Source: a virus
Direction: 5' to 3' (one strand)
Virus record (IMG/VR): IMGVR_UViG_3300022821_000923
Coordinates: 1-30,299 of that record
Length of the DNA: 30,299 nucleotides
The first letter of the stretch is position 1. Every line of letters starts with the position of its first letter. The notes under the pieces were generated by a model. That model worked only from the letters and a program-made list of their open reading frames with translations. It was not told the DNA's origin and searched no databases. Below, in pieces: positions 3,021-28,561 of the stretch. Position numbers and translations under genes: made by a program.

Positions 3021-3251
3021 ATGGTGGATGTTGCTTTACTACTTATAAGGATGCCAGAAAGAAGATGGAGAGAGTTGTTCCATGCTTATAGTATTGGTGA
3101 TATCCTTACGGTGGGTAGACTAGTGTATAAGCATCTACAGGCGGACTTAAGAAGAAAAGAAAAGCTTTCAGGGATTAAACATAAGCCACATACTAATGTA
3201 ACCAATGAATTCAAAACTGTAGAGGACTTGGAGAAACTATGGAAATCGTAA
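3021..3251 (+). CDS. Small hypothetical protein upstream of portal
   Basis: A 76-residue protein with an AAGGAAT ribosome site, starting at ATGGTGG. It is basic and likely helical (segments RMPERRWRELFHAYS and LVYKHLQADLRRKEKL). Its last 13 bases overlap the start of the portal gene. The position directly before the portal, and a helical basic make-up, would fit a small DNA-binding packaging factor. There is no clear helix-turn-helix, so this is only a guess. It is not recognised as a known family. Confidence 0.65.
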   Translation: MVDVALLLIRMPERRWRELFHAYSIGDILTVGRLVYKHLQADLRRKEKLSGIKHKPHTNVTNEFKTVEDLEKLWKS

Positions 3252-10988: not shown

Positions 10989-11396
10989 ATGTCAAGTAGA
11001 GGTTATAGACCAGTACTTGCAGACTCTTTTATTGCTGATGAGGCTTTAACTCAGTACTCGGTTGTTGTTTACAGTGGGAGTGGCGCAGCTGGTCAGGAAG
11101 GGCATGTTACTAATGCCGCCGCCAGTGGTGACAATCTCATAGCCGGTATCGTTCAGGATGACGCAGCAGCATCAGGTGATGTTGTAAATGTTATGCAGAT
11201 AGGTAAGAGCTACGTTCGCGCAGCGATTGCAGGTTCTATCGGTGACATGTTGCACATTCATGATGCGACCGGTCAGGTATCTACACCTACGGCTTGGACT
11301 TCTGGAGATGGCGTTGTTGGCCATTATGAAGAAGCACCTACAGCTAGTGGTGATATAGTTACCGCCTATGTAAACATCCGTGAGGAAAAAATCTAA
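10989..11396 (+). CDS. Head decoration protein (DUF2190-like)
   Basis: A 135-residue, Gly/Ala/Val-rich, all-beta protein directly upstream of the major capsid gene, where siphoviruses keep the decoration or capsid-stabilising protein. The sequence GIVQDDAAASGDVVNVMQIG followed later by IGDMLHI recalls DUF2190-type decoration proteins. It has a strong AGGAGGG ribosome site. Codons here and in the capsid gene use more CGT/GGT than the rest, as expected for highly expressed genes. Four of its residue triplets are Ser-Gly-Asp (Ser46, Ser62, Ser105, Ser120), the densest occurrence of that motif in the window. The decoration role comes from position and fold pattern, not from a close family match. 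Confidence 0.68.
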   Translation: MSSRGYRPVLADSFIADEALTQYSVVVYSGSGAAGQEGHVTNAAASGDNLIAGIVQDDAAASGDVVNVMQIGKSYVRAAIAGSIGDMLHIHDATGQVSTPTAWTSGDGVVGHYEEAPTASGDIVTAYVNIREEKI

Positions 11397-13331: not shown

Positions 13332-13826
13332 ATGGAGTACTACGGTAGCAGTGGAGACATAAGAGCGGATATGAATGGAGGGTTAGCAATCACCCATAAT
13401 AACTATATGGGGGAGGCCCAACTCTCTGGTGCTTTGATTACTAGGGCACAGAGAAATGCATATGCGACTATTAATAGTAAACTGGAGTCGTCTTATCCAT
13501 CTCAGGTACCTTGGGCATCAGGAAGTGAACCAGCATTGCTATATGAAATAGCAAATAAGTTGTCAATGTGTTTTATTCTCACTAGGAAGAATCCAGGTAG
13601 TGATCCTTTGGATAAGAACAGGAGAGAAAGATACTGTGAAGAACCTATTAAGGAGTTAGACCAGATAGCAGAATTCGAAATGCAGTTACCTGAGATATCT
13701 TCTCCCTTAGGAGCAAAGGTAAGTCACAACAGAGATTATACACCTGTATGTGATATGGATGATTTAGAAAACCAGAGAGTAGACCCTGACTTGTTGGATG
13801 ACATAGTAGATGAGAGGACTAAATGA
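13332..13826 (+). CDS. Head-tail connector (DUF1320/gp36-like adaptor)
   Basis: A 164-residue helical protein with AAGGAGG upstream. The central part (ITRAQRNAYATINSKL, ALLYEIANKLSMCFI, and RRERYCEEPIKELDQIAEFE) fits DUF1320/Mu gp36-type and gp6-type adaptor proteins. Those consist of helical bundles and form a ring below the portal. It stands just before the Mu gpG-like gene, the usual order for these proteins. The C-terminal 45 residues are acidic. Its stop overlaps the next start (ATGA). The family call rests on pattern and position; a different adaptor family is possible. It contains one SGD triplet near the N-terminus. Confidence 0.62.
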   Translation: MEYYGSSGDIRADMNGGLAITHNNYMGEAQLSGALITRAQRNAYATINSKLESSYPSQVPWASGSEPALLYEIANKLSMCFILTRKNPGSDPLDKNRRERYCEEPIKELDQIAEFEMQLPEISSPLGAKVSHNRDYTPVCDMDDLENQRVDPDLLDDIVDERTK

Positions 13827-14281
13827 TAATATTGTCAATTGACGATAATTCGCAACAGGTGAATACGTATCTTAAGGGATTGGGAAGGAAGATGAGCAAT
13901 CTTGTCATACCCATGAAGCAAATAGGTATGTTGATGCAAAGAAGTGTTGATGATAACTTTCGTCAAGAGGGTAGACCTGCTAAGTGGAAAGCTCTCGCTC
14001 CCAGTACTGTAAAGCAGAGAAGAAAGGGAAGTTCTACTATTCTACAAGATACCGGTACTTTAAAGAATAGCATTAATTACGAGGTTAGAGGTACTAAGGA
14101 AGTAGCGATAGGAACTTCAGTAGCATATGCAGCAACACATAACTTTGGTAGAGTACAGGGAAAGGCCGTAATACCCCAGAGGAAGTTTTTACTCTTTCAA
14201 GAGGAAGATAAAAGAAGGATAAGTAAGGTACTCACAGATTATATAGGAAAGGCATTAACCGGTAAGATGGTGAAGTTTTAA
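13823..14281 (+). CDS. Virion morphogenesis protein (Mu gpG / phage tail completion family)
   Basis: A 152-residue protein. It carries the family hallmarks: QIGMLMQRSVDDNFRQEG, then WKALAPSTVKQRRKG, LQDTGTLKNSINYEV, and YAATHNFGR with PQRKFLLF. These are typical of the phage virion morphogenesis family (Mu gpG, PF05069) and the HK97 gp10-type completion proteins. It is thought to finish the head-tail joint, sitting between connector and tail terminator. Start overlaps the previous stop (ATGA). Length matches the family (about 150). The call is firm. Confidence 0.85.
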   Translation: MIILSIDDNSQQVNTYLKGLGRKMSNLVIPMKQIGMLMQRSVDDNFRQEGRPAKWKALAPSTVKQRRKGSSTILQDTGTLKNSINYEVRGTKEVAIGTSVAYAATHNFGRVQGKAVIPQRKFLLFQEEDKRRISKVLTDYIGKALTGKMVKF

Positions 14282-14871: not shown

Positions 14872-16092
14872 ATGAGAATATTAGTATTAACAGAAAATCC
14901 TTGCTCACACACAGGGATGGCAAAGGTAGGTGGAGAGATTGCTACTGTCTTGCATGAGTCAGGGCATGAAATCATTTATCTGGCCTGTGGTAGTAGGGAA
15001 GTTGACCCTGACCAGTATCCATTCAAAATTATACCAACAGAACAAGACTCTTGGGGGAAGGATATCTTCGACCAAGTTGTTTATGGAGAAAGACCAGATG
15101 TGGTTCTGACAATTGGTGACCCTTGGTTTTACGATTACTTAACAGACCCTAACCAATGCAAGAGTAGAAACTTATTCTCGTGGGTAGGTTACTTAGCCGT
15201 AGACGGAGAAAAGATAGGTGGGGGTTTACCTAACTTTTGGGGTAAGGTCGTAGTATCTATGGATAGAGTGATTGCGTATACAGATTTCGGTAAAGACGCA
15301 CTACTGAAGAGTTTTCCTTTCTTGGAGGGTAAGTTACCTGTAATCTATCATGGAGTAAATGAGAAAGATTATTATCCTCTACCTCCAGAAGTAAAAAAGA
15401 AGTTTAGAGGTAGATACACTTTTCAGGATAGGTTCATATTTCTCTGTGTTGCAAGAAATCAGGGTAGAAAGAATTGGCCTGAGTTATTCAAGGCTTGGAA
15501 GATAGTACAAGAAGAAGGTATGTGTCCTGGGGCAGTACTTTGGCCACACACTTACTTTTATGACCCTGCAGGGCATAACATTGATGATTTACTTGCAACG
15601 TTTGATTTAGCGGGTTCTCAATCAATAGTGTTCTTTTCTCAGATAGCAAGGGGGAGTAGCTTTTCGAAGTTGATATCTAAACCAGAACTGAACATACTGT
15701 ACAATATGTCAAACGCTTTGGTGTCAATAGGGGGAGAAGGATTTGGTCTTCCTGTTATTGAAGCAATGGCCGCTAAGGTACCAACGTTAGTTCTTAACGA
15801 GTCAGCAACAGGAGAGTTAGGAGGAGAGGAAAGGTCTTTTCTTGTAGAGGCGGGACATTACTTAACAGGGAGATACCTAACTGAAAGACCAGTACCAGAA
15901 CCTAGAGCAATAGCAGAAGCAATGCAACAGATGTATAAGGATGAGGGAGGCAGAACTTATTGCGCAGATAAGGCGTATAGATTTGCCTTAGACCATACGT
16001 GGACAAAGGTGGGAGAACAATGGGTGGCGTTTTTCGATAAGTTAGAATCGCCCACTAAGTATCCTATGATATTAGAGGAGGTAGGAGTATGA
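14872..16092 (+). CDS. Glycosyltransferase, GT4-like (GT-B fold)
   Basis: A 406-residue group 1 glycosyltransferase that should move a sugar from a nucleotide sugar to an acceptor. The N-terminal Rossmann half starts MRILVLTENPCSHTGMAKVG, with the Gly-rich loop typical of GT-B enzymes. The C-terminal half has FLCVARNQGRKNWPELFKAW and the donor-binding EX7E signature EGFGLPVIE with Glu289 and Glu297. No signal peptide or membrane helix is seen, so it acts in the cytoplasm. It has a strong AAGGAGGT ribosome site, and its stop overlaps the next start (ATGA). Sugar and acceptor cannot be predicted. As the first gene of an insertion inside the tail module it probably serves the phage during virion assembly or modifies the host surface. 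Confidence 0.88.
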   Translation: MRILVLTENPCSHTGMAKVGGEIATVLHESGHEIIYLACGSREVDPDQYPFKIIPTEQDSWGKDIFDQVVYGERPDVVLTIGDPWFYDYLTDPNQCKSRNLFSWVGYLAVDGEKIGGGLPNFWGKVVVSMDRVIAYTDFGKDALLKSFPFLEGKLPVIYHGVNEKDYYPLPPEVKKKFRGRYTFQDRFIFLCVARNQGRKNWPELFKAWKIVQEEGMCPGAVLWPHTYFYDPAGHNIDDLLATFDLAGSQSIVFFSQIARGSSFSKLISKPELNILYNMSNALVSIGGEGFGLPVIEAMAAKVPTLVLNESATGELGGEERSFLVEAGHYLTGRYLTERPVPEPRAIAEAMQQMYKDEGGRTYCADKAYRFALDHTWTKVGEQWVAFFDKLESPTKYPMILEEVGV

Positions 16093-17207
16093 ACCAGTTA
16101 ATCTGGCACGGACCCTTTGCAGGGCAATCAGGATATGAAGTAATGACAAGAGCTATGCTCATTGAGTTAGATAAGATGGGTGTTTGTATAGCTTTGGATG
16201 AATCCACTACTTGGAACAGAGAAAAGATATCGTTAGACGAAGATGTAGCACGTAGGTTACAAAGAATGATGAATCAGAAAGTTCAACCAGGTACTCCAGC
16301 GATAATGCATCAGAGAGCACAACAGCGATTACTTGATAGGTTACCTGCAGACTGTAAGAGGTACATCTATACTCTATTTGAGACAGATAGATTACCCGAA
16401 CCTTGGGAGAAGGAATTACAAGCCGTTGATGGAGTGTTTACGTTTAGTAACTTCAACAGGGACTTATGGGCTCAGAACTCAGGGTTGGATAAGGATAGGA
16501 TACATATTCTTCCTTGGGGGATAGAGAAGGAGTTTAAGGTCGATGGCCTTAAAGCGAACATTCTCAATAAGAAAGAGTTCACGTTTATAGCCAATGGTGA
16601 TTTTACAGAAAGGAAGAATTTTGAAGTTCTCCTTGAAGCGTTTACGAAAGAGTTCAAGGCAAACGAAGATGTTTGCTTAGTACTTAAAACGCACTATGGG
16701 GGCTTTGGTATGCAACAAAGAAGAAGACTCGTAAGCAGACTAAAGGAGTTATCTACCTCATGGGTAGCTAATCCACCTAAGATACTGTTCTTTGGAGATA
16801 AAGTAACAACGCCCGATATAGCGAATCTGTATCGAGCATGTGATTGTTTAGTATTACCCAGTAGAGGTGAGGGTTTGGGATTACCTGTGTTAGAGGCGAT
16901 GGCCTGTGGGTTACCCATAATAGCGACCAATTGGTCCTCCTTATCAGAACTGGGCTTTCAGGGACACAACCTTTCTTACACATTAGAACAAATATCGAGT
17001 GTGGATTATATTAGGAAGTGCCCTGAAGCATTGAACCATAAGTGGGCTAGTGTAGATGTGGAAGAGTTACGAAAAGCAATGCGCCATATGTTCACTAATA
17101 AAGAGGAAGCAAAAGCTATGGGTTTAGCTAATGCAGAGACTGCGAAAGCCAGGACATGGCATGACGCAGCGGTAAAGATACTGAAAGTAATCGGAGGTGA
17201 GCAGTAA
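16089..17207 (+). CDS. Glycosyltransferase, GT4-like (second copy)
   Basis: A 372-residue group 1 glycosyltransferase, not a recent duplicate of its neighbour (little identity apart from motifs). The second half has DGVFTFSNFNRDLW, ILPWGIEKEF and FIANGDFTERKNFEVLLEAF. The donor-binding EX7E signature EGLGLPVLE has Glu261 and Glu269, followed by MACGLPIIATNW. There is no signal peptide. Start overlaps the upstream stop (ATGA) and its stop overlaps the next start (TAATG), so the cassette is translationally coupled. The two GT4 enzymes would act in sequence on one glycan or on different acceptors. A short frame at 16333-16524 in another reading frame is only a shadow. Confidence 0.87.
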   Translation: MNQLIWHGPFAGQSGYEVMTRAMLIELDKMGVCIALDESTTWNREKISLDEDVARRLQRMMNQKVQPGTPAIMHQRAQQRLLDRLPADCKRYIYTLFETDRLPEPWEKELQAVDGVFTFSNFNRDLWAQNSGLDKDRIHILPWGIEKEFKVDGLKANILNKKEFTFIANGDFTERKNFEVLLEAFTKEFKANEDVCLVLKTHYGGFGMQQRRRLVSRLKELSTSWVANPPKILFFGDKVTTPDIANLYRACDCLVLPSRGEGLGLPVLEAMACGLPIIATNWSSLSELGFQGHNLSYTLEQISSVDYIRKCPEALNHKWASVDVEELRKAMRHMFTNKEEAKAMGLANAETAKARTWHDAAVKILKVIGGEQ

Positions 17208-18148
17208 TGGGTAAGGAAAAGATAGCAATAGTCCTTACGAGGACATTAGGGGACGTTCTTCTAGTGCATAACCTTATAGATGGTATCTATAAGAAGTACG
17301 AAGAACCAGAGGTAGATGTATACGTGGATGAAGCATACAAAGACATAGTCTTTGGTAATCCTAGGGTAAGTAAGATTTACACTTCTCCAAACTGGTTAAA
17401 GAATTGGGAAGCCATTTTAACGATGGTTGTTGACAAGCAAGGTTTATGGAATTATGACGATGTTCTTATCCCTCAGCAAATAACTCAAGAGGATACGATA
17501 TGGCATCAGTTAGACCATTTAAGGCATCAGCATCTGGTAGATTATTATTTAGACAGATGTAGGTTGCCTGCAAGAGAAGAAGGGGAAAAAGTACAACTCT
17601 TTTTATCAGAGCACGACTATGCAGCAGTAGACAGAGTGCTCGATATAAACAAACAGAACAAGTATGTAGTAGTTCATACTACATCTGGGGTTCCTACTAA
17701 GGATTGGGATAAGTTCGAAGAACTTACTCATCGTCTCTTAGATATGGGGCTTTCAGTGTTTCAGGTAGGGGCAACTACAGATAGACCTGCTAATGGTACT
17801 GTGGATAAGGAAGACGTAAAGTTCTTCGATGTAAGAGAGAAGTTGACTCTTTCTCAGGTAGGAGCGTTATGTAAGAAGGCACTATGCTTTGTGGGTCTCG
17901 ATAGTGGACTGAGTTTTGTAGCAGCATCCTCAGGAACACCTACAATAGTACTTCAGGGTTCTACAATTCCAGAAACATCTGGACCTTGGGGGGAGAACGT
18001 AATCAACGTATTGTCAGAAACCCTTCCACAGTGTGAAGAAATAAGGTGTCACACTAATTGCAGATTCCCGAAGGAAGTGAATGGTAAATGTATCAACAAG
18101 ACGAAAGCGTCTGCGATACTTGATGTAATAAAGGGGTTGTCAGAATGA
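17207..18148 (+). CDS. Glycosyltransferase, GT9 (heptosyltransferase)-like
   Basis: A 313-residue protein of the ADP-heptose:LPS heptosyltransferase (GT9) type. The N-terminal part has IAIVLTRTLGDVLLVHNLI, the typical G-D-x-x-h start. The C-terminal part has VVVHTTSGVPTKDWDKFEEL and GLDSGLSFVAASSGTPTIVL, the family signature. The last 50 residues carry four cysteines (pattern C-x4-C-x3-C and a later Cys). GT9 enzymes in bacteria build LPS core; here the natural acceptor is unknown. Both ends overlap neighbouring genes by 1-4 bases, which ties it to the GT4 and radical SAM genes. Donor could be a heptose or another sugar nucleotide. Confidence 0.83.
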   Translation: MGKEKIAIVLTRTLGDVLLVHNLIDGIYKKYEEPEVDVYVDEAYKDIVFGNPRVSKIYTSPNWLKNWEAILTMVVDKQGLWNYDDVLIPQQITQEDTIWHQLDHLRHQHLVDYYLDRCRLPAREEGEKVQLFLSEHDYAAVDRVLDINKQNKYVVVHTTSGVPTKDWDKFEELTHRLLDMGLSVFQVGATTDRPANGTVDKEDVKFFDVREKLTLSQVGALCKKALCFVGLDSGLSFVAASSGTPTIVLQGSTIPETSGPWGENVINVLSETLPQCEEIRCHTNCRFPKEVNGKCINKTKASAILDVIKGLSE

Positions 18149-19566
18149 GAGTAGTATTCGTAATGGATGATTTTCTTATCGAGCCTTTAGGTATAGGCTA
18201 TCTGAGTTCTGTCCTCAAAGAGGAAGGGCACAAGGTAGACTTGGTAAAGACTAATGGGGATATAACTGTTCCTAAAGAGATGAGAGATTTACATGACGAA
18301 AAGTTCATCCTAGCGTATTCTGTAACAACGGGAACACATCAGTACTACATAAAGTTGAACAATCTGCTGAAGACGTACTTCCAAAATGCAATTGCTGTAT
18401 TTGGTGGACCTCATCCAACTTACTTCCCAGAGGTATTAGAGGAGAGGTGTATCGACTACATCATACGAGGAGAAGCCGAGAAGGCACTTCCAGAGCTTCT
18501 TAGTTGCATAGAAGATGGTAGAGAGTTTAATTGTGGAGAGGTTTGCGATTTGGTACAAGACTTAGACACTATACCATTTCCAGATAGAGATTTACTCTAC
18601 AAGTACGATAGGAATAGAGACAATCCCATTAAAAGCGTTATGACAATGAGGGGTTGCCCATTTAGCTGTACGTATTGTTACAACGTGTTATACAAGCAGT
18701 TATACAGGGAAAAGAAGCAAAAGCTGGTACGATTTAGAGGTGCCAGGAACATAATAGACGAATGTAAGGATTTGAAGAGGTTTCCTTTGGAGATGATATA
18801 CTTCCAGGATGACGAGTTTACTTCTAATCCGAACTTCACAGCACTGATGCTAATGTACAAGGATGAAGTTCAGGTTCCTTTTCACGCACAGTTAAGAATA
18901 GACAGGATAACAGAAGAGAAGATTATCCTATTGAAAGATGCAGGTTGTACGGGTGTGACTTTTGCTATAGAGTCTGGTTCTGAAAGACTTCGGAAAGAGT
19001 TGCTCAACAGACATATGTCTAATGAGAAGATTCTTGCTGGAGTAGCTTTATTGAAGAAGCATAAGATGAAGTTCAGAACTGAGAACATGATAGGAGCGCC
19101 CACAGAAACGAGAAAGGACATCTTAGATACAATTAGGTTGAACATCGCTTGTAAACCTGCTGTAGCTTGGGCATCTATTTTTCAACCCTATCCAAACTTA
19201 GAGTTAGGAAAGAAGTGTGAGGAATTGGGGTTGTGGGAATGTAACGTAGATGACTTTAGCCCCAACTTCTTTGACAAAACTGAGTTGAAGTTTGAACCCC
19301 GTCATGCGAGGTTCGTAAACAATACTCAGAAGTTCTTTGGCTTCATATCGAAGCACAAATGGGCCTTACCCTTAGCTTTATTGCTAAGCCATATCCCAGA
19401 GAACGAAAAGTTTAAGGAGTTTTATGCGTGGTACAAACAAAGAGGCTATAATCTACTCTACAGCAATAAGGAGGGGAAATGTCAGGCAAAGAAAATTCTG
19501 GAAAAAAGACCGTCGAAGGTATCGGTGACGAAGGCTTCGGTACGAAGGTTTTTCCACCAGAGCTGA
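18145..19566 (+). CDS. Radical SAM protein with B12-binding-like N-terminal domain
   Basis: A 473-residue enzyme of the B12-binding-domain radical SAM (BchE-like) class. The N-terminal domain (about 1-135) has the Rossmann pattern of cobalamin-binding domains, with PLGIGYLSSVLKEEGHKV and AVFGGPHPTYFPE. The canonical D-x-H-x-x-G motif is absent, as in many of this class. The radical SAM core has the CX3CX2C cluster motif CPFSCTYC (Cys171, Cys175, Cys178) in RGCPFSC. Such enzymes do methylations, cyclisations or sugar-related rearrangements. Coupled by ATGA to the GT9 gene, it may make or alter the glycan built by the three transferases; that is inference. The last 29 residues overlap the next gene by 88 bases and look unlike an enzyme end, so the frame may have been extended on its 3' side. 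Confidence 0.86.
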   Translation: MRVVFVMDDFLIEPLGIGYLSSVLKEEGHKVDLVKTNGDITVPKEMRDLHDEKFILAYSVTTGTHQYYIKLNNLLKTYFQNAIAVFGGPHPTYFPEVLEERCIDYIIRGEAEKALPELLSCIEDGREFNCGEVCDLVQDLDTIPFPDRDLLYKYDRNRDNPIKSVMTMRGCPFSCTYCYNVLYKQLYREKKQKLVRFRGARNIIDECKDLKRFPLEMIYFQDDEFTSNPNFTALMLMYKDEVQVPFHAQLRIDRITEEKIILLKDAGCTGVTFAIESGSERLRKELLNRHMSNEKILAGVALLKKHKMKFRTENMIGAPTETRKDILDTIRLNIACKPAVAWASIFQPYPNLELGKKCEELGLWECNVDDFSPNFFDKTELKFEPRHARFVNNTQKFFGFISKHKWALPLALLLSHIPENEKFKEFYAWYKQRGYNLLYSNKEGKCQAKKILEKRPSKVSVTKASVRRFFHQS

Positions 19567-19667
19567 TGAGGAGAAGGTGGTCCATGAAAGAGATAATAAC
19601 AATGGTCCATGATGAGTTTTGCAGAGATGGAAAACTCACACAAAAGGTAAAAGATATAACTAAATAA
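19479..19667 (+). CDS. Small hypothetical protein (62 aa) overlapping the radical SAM gene
   Basis: A 62-residue basic protein in another frame from the radical SAM gene. The ATG follows AAGGAGGGG at a good distance. Its first 88 bases lie inside the radical SAM reading frame, far more overlap than the 1-4 bases seen elsewhere. It starts MSGKENSGKKTVEGIGDEGF and has a helical second half (MKEIITMVHDEFCRDGKLTQ). No domain is recognised. It sits between the sugar cassette and the tail tube gene, so it could be a substrate, an adaptor or an ancestral tail gene interrupted by the cassette. Confidence 0.6.
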   Translation: MSGKENSGKKTVEGIGDEGFGTKVFPPELMRRRWSMKEIITMVHDEFCRDGKLTQKVKDITK

Positions 19668-19683
19668 AAAAGGAGGTGATACA

Positions 19684-20562
19684 ATGACAGTTCCAATTGC
19701 AGCACAAGGGTACATGGGAATAAGGAAAGAGTTAAGCTTTGGTAGTGGAGGAGCAGTAACTGAGTATCAATCAATCTACAGTGAAGACCTACAAATTACC
19801 AAAAGTTATTACTACGGAGACAGAGTTATGGATACACCAGCACAGGTTGGTGGAAGATTAATGAATGTTGCCGTAGCAGGTTCAGTAACTTTTCCAGTAA
19901 CTCCCTCAGGACCCGAACAGTGGTGGATAGCGGGTGTAGGTGGTTCTTCGTCTCCTTACGCACCGGATAGACCTTTAAGTTCTTTGGTCTTACACGTTGA
20001 TAGAGAGACAGCAGATATCTATACTTCAGGAGACATGGTGAGTTCTCTTGAGTTTACTTCTTCGCAATCTAATCCTCTCCAGTGTGTAGCCACACTAGAA
20101 GGTAAAGGTTATCAGAAGCTTACTCAGGGTAGTTCAGCATCATTTACTTCTGGGGATGACCCGTATCTACATAACGATGCTGTTTTCGAATTCGATGACG
20201 TAGCGAACACAGATATAACTTCGTTCTCGCTTTCGATAAACAACAATCTCGTTACGGACCTCTATACCACAGGTAAAGAGAGAGTAAGCATACCAGCAAC
20301 TAAAGTTGTAATAACAGGAAGCTTTACGAAGCTGTTTCAGGATACTGATGAGTTGGATAAGTTCTTAAGTGAACTTCCCACGAAACTGGAAGCAACATAC
20401 TCCAGAGATTCGAGCTCATTCAAGCTCCAAATGAACAAGGTATTGTTTGACAATTCATCGTCACCGTTGTCTAGTCAGACAGATTACGTTGCAGAAACAT
20501 TTAACTTTACTGCTTACATCGATGACACAGATAACGATGTGTTAACTTTGACAGTAGTATAA
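19684..20562 (+). CDS. Major tail protein (tail tube)
   Basis: A 292-residue beta-rich protein that should stack as rings to form the tail tube. It has the order expected: before the two overlapping chaperone frames and the tape measure. The N-terminal part (MTVPIAAQGYMGIRKELSFG) and the central LQCVATLEGKGYQKL and ITSFSLSINNNLVTD fit the tube protein group found in many siphoviruses. Ribosome site AAGGAGGTG is 7-9 bases upstream. It has two SGD triplets (YTSGDMV, FTSGDDPY). Assignment rests on order and composition; the family match by eye is moderate. Confidence 0.75.
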   Translation: MTVPIAAQGYMGIRKELSFGSGGAVTEYQSIYSEDLQITKSYYYGDRVMDTPAQVGGRLMNVAVAGSVTFPVTPSGPEQWWIAGVGGSSSPYAPDRPLSSLVLHVDRETADIYTSGDMVSSLEFTSSQSNPLQCVATLEGKGYQKLTQGSSASFTSGDDPYLHNDAVFEFDDVANTDITSFSLSINNNLVTDLYTTGKERVSIPATKVVITGSFTKLFQDTDELDKFLSELPTKLEATYSRDSSSFKLQMNKVLFDNSSSPLSSQTDYVAETFNFTAYIDDTDNDVLTLTVV

Positions 20563-20599
20563 CGGGCGCAAACCTAAAAGGGCGCACAGGAGGAGAGAT

Positions 20600-20974
20600 A
20601 TGAAGTTAGTAAATGTAAAAGAGTCATATGAGGTAGTGTATCAGGAGAAAGATGTAGCTAAGGATAAGCAACCAGTGTTTATGCTGAGGAAACTAAGTGC
20701 AGGAGAAGTTAACTCTATTGATGATGAGATAACTGTCAGTAGGGGAGATGAAACTTTTGCTTATCTTGGTGGAACAGCAACTAGGTTGAAGATTGACTTG
20801 GCCATTGTAAGTTGGAGAAACGTGGAGTTGGTAGAAGGAAAGGATGCTACTTGTAATTCAGCTAACAAGGAACTTCTTCCTTCTATTGTTCAACAGTTCC
20901 TCGCGAAGAGGATTGATGAAGATAACGGTCTCCGGAAGACATCTAAGAGGAGCGAGGAAGAAAAAAACTCGTAA
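20600..20974 (+). CDS. Tail assembly chaperone, frame 0 (gpG-like)
   Basis: A 124-residue protein between tail tube and tape measure. In lambda this place is taken by gpG, which binds the tape measure and recruits tube subunits. The gene is preceded by AGGAGGAGAGAT. Near its end it has the slippery heptamer A AAA AAC at 20962-20968, codons aligned so that tRNAs can slip back one base. In the -1 frame, reading continues without a stop into the next open frame, which has no good ribosome site. That is the standard design for chaperone pairs. The N-terminal half has KDKQPVFMLRKLSAGEVNSID, reminiscent of tail chaperone cores. Confidence 0.8.
   Translation: MKLVNVKESYEVVYQEKDVAKDKQPVFMLRKLSAGEVNSIDDEITVSRGDETFAYLGGTATRLKIDLAIVSWRNVELVEGKDATCNSANKELLPSIVQQFLAKRIDEDNGLRKTSKRSEEEKNS
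20962..20968 (+). promoter_or_regulatory. Programmed -1 ribosomal frameshift site (A AAA AAC)
   Basis: A seven-base slippery sequence in the correct phase (X XXY YYZ), 6 bases before the frame-0 stop. After slippage the next codons read CTC GTA AGG and lead, with no stop, into the frame that contains the ATG at 21001. This joins 123 residues of the first frame to 107 of the second. Placement between tail tube and tape measure is that of lambda G/T. I did not identify a convincing downstream pseudoknot or stem, and did not fold the RNA. Confidence 0.82.
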
Positions 20975-21000
20975 GGGCTACTGAGTTACTGCTGTCGGGG

Positions 21001-21291
21001 ATGTCTTCTCAAGCTGTTTGTGAACAGTTGCAATTGAAGAAGCTTCCCCAGGCTCTAGTGACTTACTTGTTTTGTAGCCCTACACTTGATGGAGAGTTAA
21101 GATGTTTACCTAGGTCGGGTGGGTATTATGACCAAGACCAAAAAGATATGGTAGACTTTCGAATAATTGAGAGTAGAGTATTTGACCACATGAGTAGAGA
21201 GTTCGAAAAGCAAAGGATGGCGATGAAGCACAAAGGACCTAGTGGTCAAGGACCAATAAAGACAGTAACTGTAGCTGAGAAGGACTTGTAA
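21001..21291 (+). CDS. Tail assembly chaperone, -1 frame part (gpT-like)
   Basis: The open frame that supplies the C-terminal part of the frameshift chaperone. The frame is open from the slip point at 20968 and the first ATG in it is at 21001. The only purines upstream of that ATG are GGGG at a poor distance, so independent initiation is unlikely. The fused product (230 residues) would add a segment with YYDQDQKDMVDFRIIESR, then a basic region with MSREFEKQRMAMKHKG. This T-type domain binds tail tube subunits in lambda. It ends 2 bases before the tape measure start. Confidence 0.75.
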   Translation: MSSQAVCEQLQLKKLPQALVTYLFCSPTLDGELRCLPRSGGYYDQDQKDMVDFRIIESRVFDHMSREFEKQRMAMKHKGPSGQGPIKTVTVAEKDL

Positions 21292-21293
21292 AT

Positions 21294-23495
21294 ATGTTGA
21301 ATCAAAGAGCGTTAGAATTAGTTGTCAAAGCCAGGAATGCTACTGCAGCAGGATTAGCTTCCGCTCAGAGGTCAATCCGAAACTTCTCCACGAGGGCAGG
21401 AAATGCTATGAGGGGAGCAGGACGAGCCGGAGGTAAAGCAGCAAAGTTCCTAAAGACTCATTGGATGGCGGTAGCCGCAGTTATTACTGGTGTGGCTATG
21501 GCGGCTATGAAATCATTGAATGCTTTTGCAGACTTCGAAAAGGGATTGGCCAACATAGCTATTCTAATGGGTAGTAATACTGGAGATGTGAAACAGTTTG
21601 AGAAGGCTATTAAGGAATTATCGGTAACCTATGGACTGACTACTAAATCGCTCCTTAAGTCTAGTTTTGACATACATTCTGCTGTAGGAAATACTGCAGA
21701 GTCTTTGAACATCTTAGCTGCTGCTTCTAAACTAGCTGTCGCTGGTGGTTCGGATATGGAAGCAACGACTCAGGGGTTGGTAACTCTAATGGAGGCGTAC
21801 GGGAGTTCTCTTAACGGTGCTGCTGACGCTGCAGACTTGTTATTTAAAGCACAGGTTAGAGCCAGAGCGACTATAGGTGAGTTATCATCTGCTGCTGGTA
21901 GGTTTTTACCAATGGCAAGTGACTTAGAGATTTCTGCTGAAGATACAATGGCCGCGTATGCTAAGATGACTGTCTCGATGGGTAACTATAATGAAGCCGC
22001 TACAGCGATGACAGGTATTATGCAGGGTCTGTTGAAACCTACCGAAGAGTTACAAGCGAAGTCTCAAGATTGGTTCGATATGACTACTCAAGAGGCCTTA
22101 AAACAAGGTAAGTTTTTAGACATCTTAGAAGAGATGGGCAAGGTACGGAAAGAAGAATTAGGACGTATGTTACCTAGGGTTAGAGCCTTGAAGGGATTGA
22201 TAGCAGCAACTAAAGAGATGAATGAGACGAGAAAGTTTGCTATAGAGTTTGCGAATAGGCAGGGTATCACGGAAGAGGCGTTAAAGGTTCAGATGGAGAC
22301 GACTAAGAAGAAATTGGATAAAGTAGCTGCTTCTTGGCATATGATGAATATAGAAGTAGGAGGGTTCATCGCAAAGGAAACTCCCTTAATTAGCGCTATG
22401 CAAAATATAGCATTGGCTATGAGGAAGTTACCAGATATGATAAGGGGGGGACTATTTACATCAGTTAAGGATGGTATCCTAGATGCAATCTTTCCAGGAG
22501 GCGCAGAAGTAGGAAGCAGAGCGGTTGCTTTCGTCAATAACGCTATAGATAAAGTAAGTGGAGTAAAAAAAGATACTGGAGGAGCTCCAACACCAACAAC
22601 TCCAATTGTTTCAGGAGGGGACCCTTGGGAGGGCCAAAGTCAAGAGGAGTTTGCAGCTAATAAGAAACTTGAGATACTAAGAGTTTCGAACACAAAAGAA
22701 GCTGAGTTAGTCTTAGAAGGAACCACAGCAATTGCTGCTATAATGGAAGAGGCTCATGAGAAGACTGCGTATATGAAAGAACAAGAAAAAATAGCAATAC
22801 TTCAAGGAGAGATGGATAAGGTCGCAGCTATTTGGTTGGCGGAGACACAGATTCAAGAAATTCGAGAGGCCGCAGGTGATAGATATATGGAGTTGCTAGC
22901 AGCACAACAGGAAATGGTAAAGAAGGTAGCTTTAGCGAATGCTCAAGCAATTATGAGCTCCACTGCTCAAACAATGGGTTCAGTAGCGTCTCTATTTGAA
23001 ATAGCCCAGGGAGAGAGTAAGAAGTATGCAATGGTCATAAAAGCTCTCAGGGTAGGAGAGGCTATAATAAATACAGCGGTTGCAGTTACTGCTGCATTAG
23101 CAGCACCACCTGGATGGCCTCTCAATATGATGGGCGTAATATCTGCAGGAGCTGCTGGAGCAGTACAGGTAGCAACTATTATGTCACAAGGATTTGCAGC
23201 AGGTACAGATAGTGTCCCTGCAAGTCTAACCCCAGGAGAGATGGTAGTTCCTAAGAGTTTCGCATCTGCGATAAGAGCGGGAAACTTAACTCTAGGAGGA
23301 CCCTCAGGTGGAGGGGAGTCAACAGGAGCAGGTTCAGGAAATGTTGTGAACCACAACTATTACATCCAAGCGGTAGACGCGCCTAGTTTTGCTAATCTGG
23401 TTCAATCGAATCCAGAAGCTATAGAAATAGTCGTTGGAAGGGCAGTTATGAACAATACACCGCTTAGAGGTGCAATGAGGGAGAACTTAATATAA
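21294..23495 (+). CDS. Tape measure protein
   Basis: A 733-residue protein that sets tail length and helps DNA enter the cell. The first 50 residues are basic and helical; a hydrophobic Ala-rich helix follows at about 54-70 (HWMAVAAVITGVAMAAM). The stretch with FEKGLANIAILMGSNTGDV and YGLTTKSLLKSSFDIHSA is typical of TP901-type tape measures. The helical middle contains coiled-coil regions. The C-terminus has FAAGTDSVPASLTPGEMVVP, a common end of tape measures. At about 0.15 nm per residue the tail would be near 110 nm (inference). No lytic domain (SLT or peptidase) is seen inside. The stop overlaps the next start (TAATG). Confidence 0.88.
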   Translation: MLNQRALELVVKARNATAAGLASAQRSIRNFSTRAGNAMRGAGRAGGKAAKFLKTHWMAVAAVITGVAMAAMKSLNAFADFEKGLANIAILMGSNTGDVKQFEKAIKELSVTYGLTTKSLLKSSFDIHSAVGNTAESLNILAAASKLAVAGGSDMEATTQGLVTLMEAYGSSLNGAADAADLLFKAQVRARATIGELSSAAGRFLPMASDLEISAEDTMAAYAKMTVSMGNYNEAATAMTGIMQGLLKPTEELQAKSQDWFDMTTQEALKQGKFLDILEEMGKVRKEELGRMLPRVRALKGLIAATKEMNETRKFAIEFANRQGITEEALKVQMETTKKKLDKVAASWHMMNIEVGGFIAKETPLISAMQNIALAMRKLPDMIRGGLFTSVKDGILDAIFPGGAEVGSRAVAFVNNAIDKVSGVKKDTGGAPTPTTPIVSGGDPWEGQSQEEFAANKKLEILRVSNTKEAELVLEGTTAIAAIMEEAHEKTAYMKEQEKIAILQGEMDKVAAIWLAETQIQEIREAAGDRYMELLAAQQEMVKKVALANAQAIMSSTAQTMGSVASLFEIAQGESKKYAMVIKALRVGEAIINTAVAVTAALAAPPGWPLNMMGVISAGAAGAVQVATIMSQGFAAGTDSVPASLTPGEMVVPKSFASAIRAGNLTLGGPSGGGESTGAGSGNVVNHNYYIQAVDAPSFANLVQSNPEAIEIVVGRAVMNNTPLRGAMRENLI

Positions 23496-24061
23496 TGAGT
23501 GCAGAAATCTTTACAGGAGATATTGTATTATCGTATGAGAAAACAAAGATATATCGAACGTTAGTCTCTCCATTTATGAGTGGTAAGGAGCAAAGACGTT
23601 CTAAGTGGACTCGTCCGAAACATAGATTCAAATGGGGAGCAACTGGAAGGAACACAGAGCAGTCTGATTACCTATACAACTTCTTCAATGGAAAGTCAGG
23701 AAAGGGAGAAAGCTTCTATTGGGAGGCTACAGATGAAAGTCCTATCTCCCAAAGTGGAGATGAACATGTAGGAACTGGAACAGGTTCGGAGAAATCCTTT
23801 CAGTTCGATAGGTATCCAGTTAAGAGTGGTGATTGTGATTTAACCGTAGATGGTACTCCAGTAACAGAGGCTTCTGATTATACGGTGAACTATACTACGG
23901 GCGCAATAGAGTTCTCTGTAGCTCCAGGAAGTGCTGAACTTGTAATGGCAACAGATTATAGATTCTACTATCAAGTTAGGTTTGGTGGGGATGAGTTGTC
24001 GCGAGAACAATTCGCCTACAAACTTTGGAATTTTGACATTGACTTGGTAGAGGTGTTATGA
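23495..24061 (+). CDS. Distal tail protein (DUF2460-like)
   Basis: A 188-residue protein just after the tape measure. It has the DUF2460 pattern: GDIVLSYEKTKIYRTLVSPF, then a central FKWGATGRNTEQSDYLYNFF with the aromatic Gly-rich loop GKSGKGESFYWEATDES. Proteins of this type (gene-transfer-agent gp12 family) form the distal tail ring that links tube and hub. It contains two SGD triplets. Start overlaps the tape measure stop and its stop overlaps the next start (ATGA). Confidence 0.8.
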   Translation: MSAEIFTGDIVLSYEKTKIYRTLVSPFMSGKEQRRSKWTRPKHRFKWGATGRNTEQSDYLYNFFNGKSGKGESFYWEATDESPISQSGDEHVGTGTGSEKSFQFDRYPVKSGDCDLTVDGTPVTEASDYTVNYTTGAIEFSVAPGSAELVMATDYRFYYQVRFGGDELSREQFAYKLWNFDIDLVEVL

Positions 24062-24909
24062 GAAACTTAACTCAAGATTTTAAGACAACTGCATCAGGTG
24101 ACCACAATAGACCAGTCGAATTGATTGACCTCTATCTGGACACAACTACATATTACTTCGTGGCTAACAACACGGAGAGTATTAGCTTCTTCAATGCTGC
24201 TTCGGGAGATGCTGCAGTTTATCAACCAGTACCAGGTTCGAGAAGTTCTGCGAAGTCTTCTTTGGGATTAGACATAGACAGAGTGAGAGTAGGAATATCC
24301 AATGTAGATAAGAGTTTGGTAGGATACTTACAGGCTAATGAGTTCAGAGGTAGACGAATAGTTATCCGACAGGTATTCACTAACGTATTGGGGTCCTCAG
24401 GAGATGCTGTTACTATATTCGATGGTCTAATGGATTCTCCAGCGGTAGACGATAAATGGTTATCCATAAATGTAGTTCCAAGGATAAGTTCGTTGAAGAA
24501 GAAAGCCCCTCACATATGGTATCAGTTACCTTGCAATTGGAGGTTCGGGGGAGAGGAGTGTGGAGTAAATGTAGCAGATGCTGCGTACAGCAAAAGTAAG
24601 ACATGTGACGCTGATTGTACTACAACTGAACTTAAAGGAGTTGATGTAACGGAGGCAGATAGGTATTGGAGAAGAGGTTACGTAAGATTCACATCGGGTC
24701 AGAATGACGGGTACAGACAAACAGTAGATACAAGTATAGTAGGACAGATTACTTTAGACAACCCTATGCCTTATGCACCAGCAGTGGGAGATACATACAC
24801 GGTGCGGACTGGTTGCGATAAGACGTTATTCATGTGCAGTGGCGATTATGGCAACGAAGCAAACTTCGGGGGCTTTCATACCATCCCTGAGAATATGGTG
24901 ATAAAATGA
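24058..24909 (+). CDS. Tail hub protein (DUF2163/BR0599-like)
   Basis: A 283-residue protein of the DUF2163/BR0599 family (gene-transfer-agent gp13 type). The N-terminal part is the hub beta domain (LIDLYLDTTTYYFVA, VTIFDGLMDSPAV). The C-terminal part carries six cysteines: Cys159, Cys168, Cys183, Cys187, Cys253, Cys260. The end reads GCDKTLFMC, then NEANFGGFHTIP, diagnostic of the family. The cysteines may hold an Fe-S cluster, as in lambda gpL; this is inference from conserved cysteines. Four SGD triplets are present. Start and stop overlap neighbours by 4 bases (ATGA), so the distal tail genes are coupled. Confidence 0.85.
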   Translation: MRNLTQDFKTTASGDHNRPVELIDLYLDTTTYYFVANNTESISFFNAASGDAAVYQPVPGSRSSAKSSLGLDIDRVRVGISNVDKSLVGYLQANEFRGRRIVIRQVFTNVLGSSGDAVTIFDGLMDSPAVDDKWLSINVVPRISSLKKKAPHIWYQLPCNWRFGGEECGVNVADAAYSKSKTCDADCTTTELKGVDVTEADRYWRRGYVRFTSGQNDGYRQTVDTSIVGQITLDNPMPYAPAVGDTYTVRTGCDKTLFMCSGDYGNEANFGGFHTIPENMVIK

Positions 24910-25337
24910 TAAATGACAGAGTGCAGAAGTATGTAGGAGTTAAGTATAAACTCAAAGGGGAAACACTAGAGGAGGGCATGGATTGCGTAACTCTATTGAT
25001 AGCCTATTATAGAGAATTGGGAACCCAGGCACAAGAGCAGTTTCCCGATTATGAGTTTGACGGACATTTTATACTTACCACAGCAAGAAAATTCAATGAT
25101 GAGATTGCAAAACTTACCGCCGGAGGACATAGGAGAGATAGGATAGAAGACCTAAAGGAAAACGACTTAATATTCTTCTCCATAAGTGGGAAGGATAGAA
25201 TAGAGTTGGCCGCTGCCTATCTGGGGGATAATAAGTTCTTGTATATGCCTCACGTAGGAAAGAGTTGTATATCTTCCCTCAGTGACTATTGGACGGGGAA
25301 GTTTAGATACGGCCTGGAGGTGGTAGGATGCCTGTAA
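24906..25337 (+). CDS. NlpC/P60-like tail protein, probably catalytically impaired
   Basis: A 143-residue protein where tail tip peptidases of the NlpC/P60 type sit (gene-transfer-agent gp14). The nucleophile Cys27 is in GMDCVTLLIAYYRELG, as in the family's DC motif. In active enzymes the His lies in a HVGIYLG segment. Here the matching segment reads IELAAAYLG (99-107), with no His. The next position normally polar is Tyr113, and a His is found only at 116 (MPHVGK). Either the active site is rearranged or the peptidase is dead and kept as a structural part. The start overlaps the hub gene (ATGA), and 10 bases overlap the J gene. Confidence 0.75.
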   Translation: MINDRVQKYVGVKYKLKGETLEEGMDCVTLLIAYYRELGTQAQEQFPDYEFDGHFILTTARKFNDEIAKLTAGGHRRDRIEDLKENDLIFFSISGKDRIELAAAYLGDNKFLYMPHVGKSCISSLSDYWTGKFRYGLEVVGCL

Positions 25338-28300
25338 CAGCCACCGCTGTAACATATGCCATTATAGGTTGGGTAATTGTCGCTGCCGGAGCCGCTGTAG
25401 TTTACGGTATGATGACTGCTCCGAAGTCTGGAGCAGTTGGTGGCGGTAACCTTATTGGTGCGGGTGGTTCTTCTCCACGATATGGATTTGGTGCTCTTCA
25501 GAATACAACTACTTCAGAGTTACCTCTTCCGATTCTATACGGCACACTGAAGATGTATGGTAACAATGTTTACCAAAGTGAACCTGGTGCTTCAGTAAAG
25601 AGAGCGATTTGTATCTGTATGGGAGAAGTTACAAGTATAACAGATGTTAAAGTAAACGACACTCCAATAGAGGATATTGGAAGTTGTTCCTATACTGCGT
25701 ACCTAGGAACTGAAACCCAAGACCAAGATGAGAGGTTCGCGGGTAAGTTATACGGTATGAGAAGGTTCGCTTATCTAGCGGTTACTCTTACTGCTGGGAG
25801 CAAACTAAAAGGTGGTAACCCCGTTGTATCCTCAACTGTAGCGGGAACGAAAGTACGAACTCCTTATGCAGCACTCAATTGGACCAATACAAAGTACTCC
25901 AATAATCCATCCGCTTGCGTATTGGATTTTCTGACTAATCAAAGATATGGATGTGGATTGGGTGACGATGTAATCGACTTCACCAGTTTCTACAATTCAT
26001 ACCTTTACTGTGATGGTCAAGTAGAAGATGGGGATGGAGGGTTAGAGAATAGATTCGAACTGGATATGGTAATTGACTCTCAGAGGTCTCAGTTAGATAT
26101 CCTAGGTGAGATACTTGCTACCTTTGGAGGGTTCCTAGTGTGGGCCCAAGGTAAACTGTTTCTTAACGTAGAGAAGGAAGAAGTATCAACTCAGGACTTT
26201 GATGAAGATACTATCATACAGGATAGTGCGAAGTTCTCAATGACGGGTAAGGATGAGTTCTACAATAGGATAAAGGTTCTCTTCTTAGACCCCGAGAATG
26301 AATATACGAAAGTTTACGCCATTGCAGAAGACTTGAATGACCAGGTCTTGAGAAACGACTTAGAGGGAGGACGAGGAGTAGTAGGTACAGAAGTCCAACT
26401 TATGGGAATCACCAGACAGAGTCAAGCACTCAGAGTAGCAAACTTCTTTCTGCGAATGTCCCGGGTCGTTGGGGTTAACCTAACATTCAAAACGTCTATC
26501 CTAGCTGTACATTGTGAACCCGGAGATGTCATATCTGTAACTTTACCCGATTACAATTGGGATAAGAAGCAATTCAGAATACTGTCTATAGCCGAAATGG
26601 ATGATGACAATAGGTTGATAGAATGTAGGGAGCACTATGGTACTCTCTATACTGACAGTTATGGAGGGGACTTATCCAACTACACCCGTCCAGTTCTACC
26701 ATTAACAGATTATGAAACGCAACCTCTTCCAAATCCAACAGACGTGGATGCTAAAGAGACTGTTTATTTCAATCACGATGGTGCAGCTATTTCAGATTTG
26801 GAAGTTACTTGGGATGGGATAAAGCAAGGATTTGAATACTTCGATTACTACCAAGTGGAGTTAAGGAAGGTAGGAGATAGTGAATTAGCAAGGTTAGAGG
26901 ATTACAAAGATGACCCAATCCTCAACCTAGGTTTATTCATCAATGTATGGACATCAGGAGATGATGGATATACAGTGGTAGGGTATACGAAAGATGAGTA
27001 TATGACTATTCCAGATGTGGAAAGTCAGGCAACCTATATAATCAGAGTTAAGACAGTCTCCACGAGAGACTATATTTCCGATGGTGCGTATTCTGCTAAC
27101 ATCATCACTTTAGGTAAACAAGGTGCCCCAGCAGTTGTTCAGGGACTTACGAATACATTTACGAACGAGATAACACTGGCTTGGACTCCCAATACAGATG
27201 TAGACCTGTGGGGATATGAAATACGTACTACTGATGTGACTTGGGCCTCTGGTGATGTTTCTAATCTCGTATTTAGGGGTCAGGCGGATACGTACACAAT
27301 AATAAGTCCAGGTTCTCGCGCTCCTGGTACTTATTATTGTAGGGCGATAGACAGGAGTGGTAACTACTCGGTCTCTTCGGCCAGTACTACACCTACCAAT
27401 GCTGCTCCTGCTGCGCCCGTTATAGAACCACTAGTGTGGTTTGGGTTTGCAGAACTAAACTGGGTAGACGTTACAGACCCTGACCTTGTAAGTTACGACA
27501 TCTACGTATCGAGAAATAACACATGGGGGAGTGGGGATGACTGGTTAGAGTCAAAGGTAGTAGGAACCAGAGCAACAATCCTAGGAGACCCTCCAGTTGC
27601 TGGTAGTGGGGATAGTGGAACAAATGACACTCTAACTGCAACAGAGTTAGTAGGTTCTGGAGATAGGAGGTTTGAGGGAGACCAGTTAGCTATAACAAGA
27701 GGTACTGGAAGAGGACAAACTAGACAGGTTATAGGATACGATGCAGTCGCAGGAACAATAACAGGAGACACTGTTTGGGATACTAATCCAGATGCTACCT
27801 CAGAATGGTTGCTGACCGATAAGAGATGGTACAGAGTTTACGGGGTGGATACTTATGGTAGCGGAGATGCTTCAAACGTTGTATCCGTCGAATATAAGAC
27901 GCTAACAGCAGACATGTTTGGCGATGAAGTCATAAAAGCCAGAAATCTCTATGCCGGGGAGATACTAACACTGTCTGCTCAAATCAGAGATGCTATCATA
28001 AACAACGCTCATATCATTAACCTTTCAGTTACGAAACTAATAGCAGGTACCTTAGCTGCAGGCTCGATAGTCATAAACGAATCGGGAGACATAAGAAGTG
28101 ACAATTATGTGGAGGGAGTTACTGGATTCAAATTAGACGGTACAGACGGGTTAGAGATTAACTCGGGAACGATATACGGAGCAGGAGTTTCAGACGTAGT
28201 AGGAAGGTCACTATTTTGGTATCTTCCAGGGTCTCCCGAGTCTGGGGACAACGCCAGTGGAACTTTCATAATGCCTTTCGACGCTACTATAAAGAGTGCA

Positions 28301-28561
28301 AGAGGTTATATAGAGAAACCTTCTTCAGGAGACTCAGTCATAGTAGACGTAGACGTTAATGGTTCATCTATCTGGGCGTCCAGTCAGTGGAACAGAATAA
28401 TACTTCCATCAGGAGATGAAACCCCCGAAACGGTTATCAGAGAAGTATTTGATACAACGACTATCGCATCCGGGGATGAAGTGACTATAGGAGTAGACCA
28501 GATAGGTTCGCTCTATGAGGGTGAAGATATTTCAATTCAACTCGACGTGGAGATAGCATAA
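25328..28561 (+). CDS. Tail tip / host specificity protein J-like
   Basis: A 1077-residue tip attachment protein. It starts with a hydrophobic segment (about 8-28, VTYAIIGWVIVAAGAAVVYG), common in J-type and gene-transfer-agent gp15 proteins. The N-terminal half is the hub/tip domain (YGFGALQNTTTSELPLPILY). From about residue 480 come fibronectin-type III-like beta domains (EVTWDGIKQGF, EITLAWTPNTDVDLWGYE, ELNWVDVTDPDLVSYDIY). The next part has a fibre stem motif, NNAHIINLSVTKLIAGTL, and the C-terminal sandwich starts near FWYLPGSPES. This exposed half holds eleven SGD triplets; the first half holds none. The GGAGGT ribosome site is inside the previous gene. The stop overlaps the next start (TAATG). 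Confidence 0.88.
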   Translation: MPVTATAVTYAIIGWVIVAAGAAVVYGMMTAPKSGAVGGGNLIGAGGSSPRYGFGALQNTTTSELPLPILYGTLKMYGNNVYQSEPGASVKRAICICMGEVTSITDVKVNDTPIEDIGSCSYTAYLGTETQDQDERFAGKLYGMRRFAYLAVTLTAGSKLKGGNPVVSSTVAGTKVRTPYAALNWTNTKYSNNPSACVLDFLTNQRYGCGLGDDVIDFTSFYNSYLYCDGQVEDGDGGLENRFELDMVIDSQRSQLDILGEILATFGGFLVWAQGKLFLNVEKEEVSTQDFDEDTIIQDSAKFSMTGKDEFYNRIKVLFLDPENEYTKVYAIAEDLNDQVLRNDLEGGRGVVGTEVQLMGITRQSQALRVANFFLRMSRVVGVNLTFKTSILAVHCEPGDVISVTLPDYNWDKKQFRILSIAEMDDDNRLIECREHYGTLYTDSYGGDLSNYTRPVLPLTDYETQPLPNPTDVDAKETVYFNHDGAAISDLEVTWDGIKQGFEYFDYYQVELRKVGDSELARLEDYKDDPILNLGLFINVWTSGDDGYTVVGYTKDEYMTIPDVESQATYIIRVKTVSTRDYISDGAYSANIITLGKQGAPAVVQGLTNTFTNEITLAWTPNTDVDLWGYEIRTTDVTWASGDVSNLVFRGQADTYTIISPGSRAPGTYYCRAIDRSGNYSVSSASTTPTNAAPAAPVIEPLVWFGFAELNWVDVTDPDLVSYDIYVSRNNTWGSGDDWLESKVVGTRATILGDPPVAGSGDSGTNDTLTATELVGSGDRRFEGDQLAITRGTGRGQTRQVIGYDAVAGTITGDTVWDTNPDATSEWLLTDKRWYRVYGVDTYGSGDASNVVSVEYKTLTADMFGDEVIKARNLYAGEILTLSAQIRDAIINNAHIINLSVTKLIAGTLAAGSIVINESGDIRSDNYVEGVTGFKLDGTDGLEINSGTIYGAGVSDVVGRSLFWYLPGSPESGDNASGTFIMPFDATIKSARGYIEKPSSGDSVIVDVDVNGSSIWASSQWNRIILPSGDETPETVIREVFDTTTIASGDEVTIGVDQIGSLYEGEDISIQLDVEIA

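What the first reader, a model, noticed from the sequence alone, without database searches (positions are those of the whole stretch)
14872..19566. Three glycosyltransferases and a radical SAM enzyme inserted as one coupled cassette between tail terminator and tail tube
GT4, GT4, GT9-like and a B12-binding-type radical SAM gene follow each other with 1-4 base overlaps, all on the operon strand, splitting a pair of tail genes normally adjacent. The set could build and chemically alter a glycan. Being co-transcribed with late virion genes favours a role in virion decoration or late host surface change rather than early DNA modification. A radical SAM partner of glycosyltransferases in a phage morphogenesis operon is, as far as I know, not a described system.
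Basis: partly seen in the sequence, partly recalled or inferred. Interest (0 to 1): 0.75.

Follow-up and report, generated by a model that had tools for sequence, protein, structure and literature searches.

The report
Phage tail-operon sugar-modification gene cassette
A tailed bacterial virus carries, in the middle of its tail-building genes, an old and conserved set of three sugar-attaching enzymes plus a B12/radical-type enzyme, which most likely coats the virus particle with an unusual sugar chain; phages that sugar-coat themselves are known, but the radical enzyme in the set appears to be new.

Summary
The four genes are real, at the stated coordinates, intact and overlapping by 4, 1 and 4 bases: GT4, GT4, GT9, B12-binding radical SAM. 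The set is no chimera or recent insert. It recurs at the same site in divergent relatives (L016; L004/L077; L069), the enzymes diverging (34-66% identity) roughly in step with tail proteins, under strong purifying selection (dN/dS 0.04-0.11). In L069 the site holds an 11 kb glycan cluster. The same radical SAM clade also lies with GT9/GT4 genes inside virion modules of two unrelated phages (L071, L075). Cultured phages have GT genes in structural operons: one lies between terminator and tail tube in Magritte, and Corndog-like mycobacteriophages have three GTs plus a methyltransferase, reported to glycosylate capsid and tail tube. Best reading: a virion-glycosylation cassette in which the B12 radical SAM enzyme replaces or supplements the usual methyltransferase, altering a sugar (nearest solved structure AprD4) or acceptor side chain (MgmA nearly as near). 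Host-surface alteration remains the main rival. Known kind, new variant; substrate and chemistry unproven.

The parts
13823..14281 (+). tail completion / Neck1 protein (Phage_tail_S), left flank
   Evidence: PF05069 81.5 bits; phrog_26 112.5 bits
14296..14835 (+). putative tail terminator (start more likely 14392), left neighbour of the cassette
   Evidence: by position only; 63% identical to L016 counterpart, no family or terminator match
14872..16092 (+). glycosyltransferase GT4-a
   Evidence: PF00534, phrog_2170; E-x7-E motif E289/E297 invariant in the pair aligned; best solved relative chlorovirus GT B736L over full length
16089..17207 (+). glycosyltransferase GT4-b
   Evidence: PF13692 70.5 bits, phrog_2170 115.9 bits; E261/E269 invariant in the pair aligned; its relative in Magritte lies at the same genomic site
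17207..18148 (+). glycosyltransferase GT9 (heptosyltransferase family)
   Evidence: PF01075 75.1 bits; weak TibC-type and LPS heptosyltransferase matches; TLGD motif Asp16 and four C-terminal Cys conserved (L069 read)
18145..19566 (+). B12-binding-domain radical SAM enzyme
   Evidence: PF04055+PF02310; CxxxCxxC invariant in 34 sequences; model pLDDT 90.7, nearest folds AprD4 and MgmA
19479..19667 (+). small 62-aa ORF overlapping the radical SAM 3' end (motif FPxExxRRRWSxKxI), function unknown
   Evidence: conserved in L004 and L016 lineages, strong ribosome-binding site
19684..20562 (+). tail tube protein, right flank and candidate substrate
   Evidence: PF18906 95 bits

Best explanation
The genes form a virion-glycosylation cassette. 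Expressed late with head and tail genes, the two GT4 enzymes and the GT9 enzyme would build a short glycan from host nucleotide sugars on one or more virion proteins (tail tube and capsid-surface proteins are the first candidates); the B12-domain radical SAM enzyme then alters that glycan (C-methylation, or diol dehydration as in AprD4) or C-methylates the acceptor side chain as in MgmA. The coat would mask or stabilise the particle. Shown: gene set, integrity, selection, conserved site, recurrence in unrelated phage virion modules, fold of the radical SAM enzyme. Inferred: late co-expression, virion as target, order of transfer, the radical chemistry.
For: Same cassette at the same site in four lineages, co-diverging with structural genes (rSAM 42%, GTs 50/54/57%, tube 55%, terminator 63%). 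dN/dS 0.04-0.11 for GT4-a, GT4-b, GT9 and rSAM, disregarding one comparison with only four differences; tube 0.03-0.05. Flat GC; no promoter or terminator excess. The rSAM clade (100/98) gathers six phage lineages and one bacterium; in L071 and L075 it lies with GT9, GT and methyltransferase genes beside portal/adaptor genes. L069 expands the site to GT9, MTase, rSAM, LicD, CTP-transferase, GT2s and a second rSAM. Corndog-like phages: O-MTase + 3 GTs inside the virion operon, reported to modify capsid and tail tube. Magritte: a GT between terminator and tube. Closest solved rSAM is AprD4 with its sugar substrate. Bacterial rSAM neighbours include GT4, GT2, GT9, MTase and flippase genes.
Against: No biochemical evidence. 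No acceptor site identified: the tail-tube model failed (pLDDT 34) and the SGD motif enriched in surface proteins is not enriched in the L016 lineage although it has the cassette. GT9 enzymes mostly act on LPS, and bacterial relatives of the rSAM sit in surface-polysaccharide neighbourhoods, which fits host-surface change as well. Gene position does not prove target. I did not read the Freeman 2023 paper itself (not held).
Confidence: 0.58

Rival explanations
1. The cassette remodels the host cell surface (LPS core/O-chain or other envelope glycan) late in infection, blocking superinfection or stopping released phage from re-adsorbing to debris.
For: GT9 is the LPS heptosyltransferase family; bacterial relatives of the rSAM lie near GT9, GT4, GT2 and flippase genes; pelagimyophage GT genes beside tail fibres, in a cluster that also gains radical SAM genes, were read that way (PMC7029224).
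Against: No membrane protein, flippase, ligase or lipid-carrier enzyme was recognised among the cassette genes; strict linkage to tail terminator/tube over large divergence; surface-exclusion genes are usually early or prophage-expressed (general knowledge).
Confidence: 0.25
2. The enzymes glycosylate and further modify the phage DNA.
For: The same virus encodes QueC/D/E, FolE, a DUF5591 protein and a RaSEA-like radical SAM protein, so it probably makes 7-deazaguanine bases; virus GTs that hypermodify DNA are reported (Pyle 2024, cited in PMC12619734).
Against: Those genes sit in a separate replication-type region far from the cassette; GT9 has no match and GT4-b only distant ones in the cultured-phage collection; the cassette lies in the virion operon in every lineage.
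Confidence: 0.08
3. The radical SAM enzyme matures a small peptide (RiPP-like), with the 62-aa ORF (and the 87-aa ORF of L016) as precursor, and the GTs glycosylate it.
For: A small conserved ORF directly follows the rSAM gene and an 87-aa ORF precedes it in L016/L004; some B12 rSAM enzymes modify peptides (general knowledge).
Against: The ORFs look like charged helical proteins without a core-peptide pattern; the 87-aa ORF is absent from the window and L069; no export or protease gene recognised.
Confidence: 0.04

Closest known systems
Virion glycosylation in Corndog-like (cluster O) and Che8-like (F1) mycobacteriophages (Freeman et al. 2023)
   Same: Three tandem, overlapping GT genes plus a methyl-transferring enzyme inside the structural operon; reported target is capsid and tail tube.
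   Different: There the set lies between portal and protease, and the partner is an annotated O-methyltransferase, not a B12 radical SAM enzyme; the window's GTs are GT4/GT4/GT9. No sequence relation shown.
Single GT between tail terminator and major tail protein in Microbacterium phage Magritte
   Same: Same genomic site; the GT is a distant relative of GT4-b (27% identity, E 3e-14).
   Different: One GT only, no rSAM, actinobacterial host; function not tested as far as I know.
AprD4 radical SAM 1,2-diol dehydratase
   Same: Best sequence and fold match of the rSAM in the PDB, with a B12-binding-like domain plus radical SAM domain; acts on a sugar, paromamine.
   Different: About 18% identity in the fold alignment; antibiotic biosynthesis enzyme; AprD4 activity cannot be assumed.
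MgmA, methyl-coenzyme M reductase glutamine C-methylase
   Same: Second fold match, nearly equal score; shows that this fold can modify a protein side chain.
   Different: Archaeal, different substrate, 18% identity.
Pelagimyophage host-recognition clusters with GTs and radical SAM genes
   Same: GT and radical SAM genes close to virion genes (PMC7029224).
   Different: GT8-rich, beside tail fibres and hypervariable; interpreted as host O-chain change.

Membership tests
Phage virion-glycosylation cassette (Corndog type) | several GT genes inside the structural operon | tested here: met
   GT genes between tail genes in four lineages, all three seen in three of them
Phage virion-glycosylation cassette (Corndog type) | partner methyltransferase gene in the set | tested here: inconclusive
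   window has a B12 radical SAM enzyme, possibly a C-methyltransferase, instead; L069 has both a SAM methyltransferase and the rSAM
Phage virion-glycosylation cassette (Corndog type) | glycan on capsid or tail tube protein | not testable with these tools
   needs virion mass spectrometry
GT4 / GT9 glycosyltransferases | family profile above cut-off and catalytic residues present | tested here: met
   PF00534, PF13692, PF01075; E-x7-E and TLGD motifs invariant in the pairs aligned
Radical SAM enzymes with B12-binding domain | CxxxCxxC motif and both domains | tested here: met
   PF04055, PF02310; three Cys invariant in 34 sequences; confident model
AprD4 diol dehydratases (NF033070) | score above the family's curated cut-off | tested here: not met
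   66 bits against a cut-off of 500; works-like remains possible
B12-dependent radical SAM C-methyltransferases | cobalamin bound and methyl transfer | not testable with these tools
   domain present; binding and activity need protein
LPS heptosyltransferases (TIGR02193/02195/02201) | score above curated cut-off | tested here: not met
   66 / 39 / 64 bits against 185 / 135 / 170

The most novel reading that the evidence does not exclude
A phage-associated clade of B12-domain radical SAM enzymes works with GT9/GT4 enzymes inside virion-assembly modules of several unrelated phages to put radical-modified (for instance C-methylated or deoxygenated) sugars on virus particles: a kind of virion chemistry not described before.
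Probability: 0.4. Interest if true: 0.8.

Novelty: new variant of a known kind. Interest (0 to 1): 0.6.

Why it matters
Glycosylated phage particles were shown only recently and in few hosts. A conserved GT/radical SAM set tied to tail genes in uncultured phages suggests that virion glycans are more widespread and chemically richer than known, gives a searchable signature (this rSAM clade beside GT9 and virion genes), and offers enzymes with which the target can be tested directly.

Tried and rejected
Chimera with a host LPS locus: rejected, identical in independent contigs and conserved in divergent phages. Recent insertion: rejected, GC flat and co-divergence with tail genes. SGD as glycosylation sequon: SGD is the most enriched tripeptide in the window's virion proteins (25 against 2.9 expected; 19 against 1.4 in L009, the L004 contig), coded by varied codons, but not enriched in L016, which has the cassette; left unexplained. 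Tail-tube structure to place candidate sites: model useless. Family-level confirmation of the terminator: none. Host: tail-tube profile in 396 + 384 genomes of the phyla of two bacterial relatives (L021, Nitrospirota; L036, Omnitrophota) gave one distant Nitrospirota provirus without the cassette; host unresolved. The phages collection has no relative of the GT9 or tube and one weak rSAM match. Sampling site (sample numbers recalled as Ace Lake, Antarctica) could not be verified.

Full report
Observation. The window is an IMG/VR virus record of 30,299 bases. The four genes are open and in the stated order with overlaps of 4, 1 and 4 bases. Family matches are clear: GT4 (PF00534), GT4 (PF13692), GT9 (PF01075) and B12-binding + radical SAM (PF02310, PF04055), all above curated cut-offs. 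Left is a tail-completion protein (PF05069), then a protein that by position should be the tail terminator but has no family match; right is a tail tube protein (PF18906). The 117-base gap before the tube is mostly filled by a small ORF, 19479-19667, with a strong ribosome-binding site, overlapping the end of the radical SAM gene and conserved in the L004 and L016 lineages (FPxExxRRRWSxKxI). No promoter or terminator stands out against shuffles.

Age and selection. The same cassette at the same place is seen in independent contigs with identical sequence (L002, L003; L006 as far as its contig reaches), in L016/L015 and their kin (GT4-a 50%, GT4-b 54%, GT9 57%, rSAM 42%, tube 55%), in the L004/L077 lineage (rSAM 66%, GT4-a 59%, GT4-b 60%, seen on two contigs that I take to be one lineage, GT9 not covered) and in L069 (GT4-a 40%, GT4-b 41%, GT9 34%, rSAM 50%, tube 45%). 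Sequence variants within the L016 group give dN/dS of 0.04-0.11 for the four enzymes, leaving aside one comparison with only four differences; tube 0.03-0.05. G+C is the same in and around the cassette. It is an old, selected part of these phages. Distant phages have the neighbours adjacent: RDJL Phi1 by annotation (its major capsid protein is a 29% relative of the window's; its 'major capsid' gp78 after the terminator is probably its tail tube, by position) and a Nitrospirota provirus.

Recurrence. A profile search found three further phage lineages with this radical SAM clade. L069 fills the terminator-tube site with 11 kb of glycan genes: GT4, GT4, GT9, methyltransferase, rSAM, SPASM protein, GT2 genes, LicD, cytidylyltransferase, GT2 + methyltransferase, rSAM/SPASM. 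L075 has FkbM and other methyltransferases, the rSAM, a GT (PF13524) and a GT9 between large terminase and portal. L071 has GT9, GT4-like, GT2-like and methyltransferase-like genes, then the rSAM, next to an SU10-type adaptor (only the GT9 and adaptor were profile-tested). In the tree the six phage proteins and one Nitrospirota chromosomal protein (L021) form a supported clade (100/98). L021 itself lies beside a GT9-like gene read from its sequence. Of 82 neighbours of bacterial relatives, 4 are GT9, 4 GT4, 4 GT2, 6 methyltransferases and 3 flippases.

What the enzymes look like. Catalytic motifs are intact (E-x7-E in both GT4s; TLGD in GT9; CxxxCxxC in the rSAM). The rSAM model is confident (pLDDT 90.7). 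Nearest solved structures are AprD4 with the sugar paromamine (E 4e-20) and MgmA, a protein glutamine C-methylase (1e-19), then cobalamin-dependent methylases. So the fold fits sugar or protein side-chain chemistry; which one cannot be told.

Comparison with known systems. Corndog-like mycobacteriophages hold an O-methyltransferase and three overlapping GT genes inside the virion operon (Firecracker, Catdawg). PMC11600133 states, citing Freeman 2023, that these enzymes modify capsid and tail tube; PMC12619734 says glycans sit at the C-termini of both. Magritte has a GT, a relative of GT4-b, exactly between terminator and major tail protein; S-CBS4 and Mae-JY09 have GT genes elsewhere in the head module. 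The general kind is therefore known; the B12 radical SAM partner is the new element. I found no paper on it in the open library, which misses most subscription journals.

Interpretation. Virion glycosylation with radical-SAM tailoring is the most economical explanation (0.58). Host-surface change is the main rival (0.25). DNA modification (0.08) is less likely although this virus probably does modify its DNA by another, 7-deazaguanine-type pathway encoded elsewhere. Everything beyond gene content, conservation and fold is inference.

Noticed in passing
L013:2296-4680 (IMGVR_UViG_3300023233_000046): The cassette's radical SAM gene carries an in-frame intein placed just before the third Cys of CxxxCxxC (PF14890 37.8 bits, TIGR01443); nearly identical copies in L014/L016 lack it.
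   Followed up: partly
rest of the same virus genome, G001 (loci L055-L057), reverse-complement coordinates about 16157-26214: FolE, QueD, QueE, QueC, a DUF5591 (ArcS-domain) protein and a RaSEA-like radical SAM protein (61 bits, below cut-off): possibly an archaeosine-type DNA base modification by an ArcS/RaSEA-like route.
   Followed up: partly
G001 reverse-complement coordinates 33480-38765: A second glycan-type cluster in the same virus: rSAM/SPASM, B12 rSAM, possible aldo/keto reductase (by eye only), methyltransferase, GT2, GT4.
   Followed up: partly
window 10989-11396, 19684-20562, 23495-24909, 25328-28561: Tripeptide SGD is strongly enriched in virion proteins (25 against 2.9 expected; none in major capsid, tape-measure or the 916-aa protein at 3239), with varied codons; also in the L004 lineage (L009: 19 against 1.4), not in L016.
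   Followed up: partly
L016:6415-6678 and L004:2-156: Small conserved ORF (87 aa in L016) between GT9 and rSAM (upstream of rSAM in L004), absent from the window, no family match.
   Followed up: partly
window 1-30299 against G001: G001 (53,965 bases) overlaps the window at both ends, so the genome appears circularly permuted, roughly 62 kb.
   Followed up: partly
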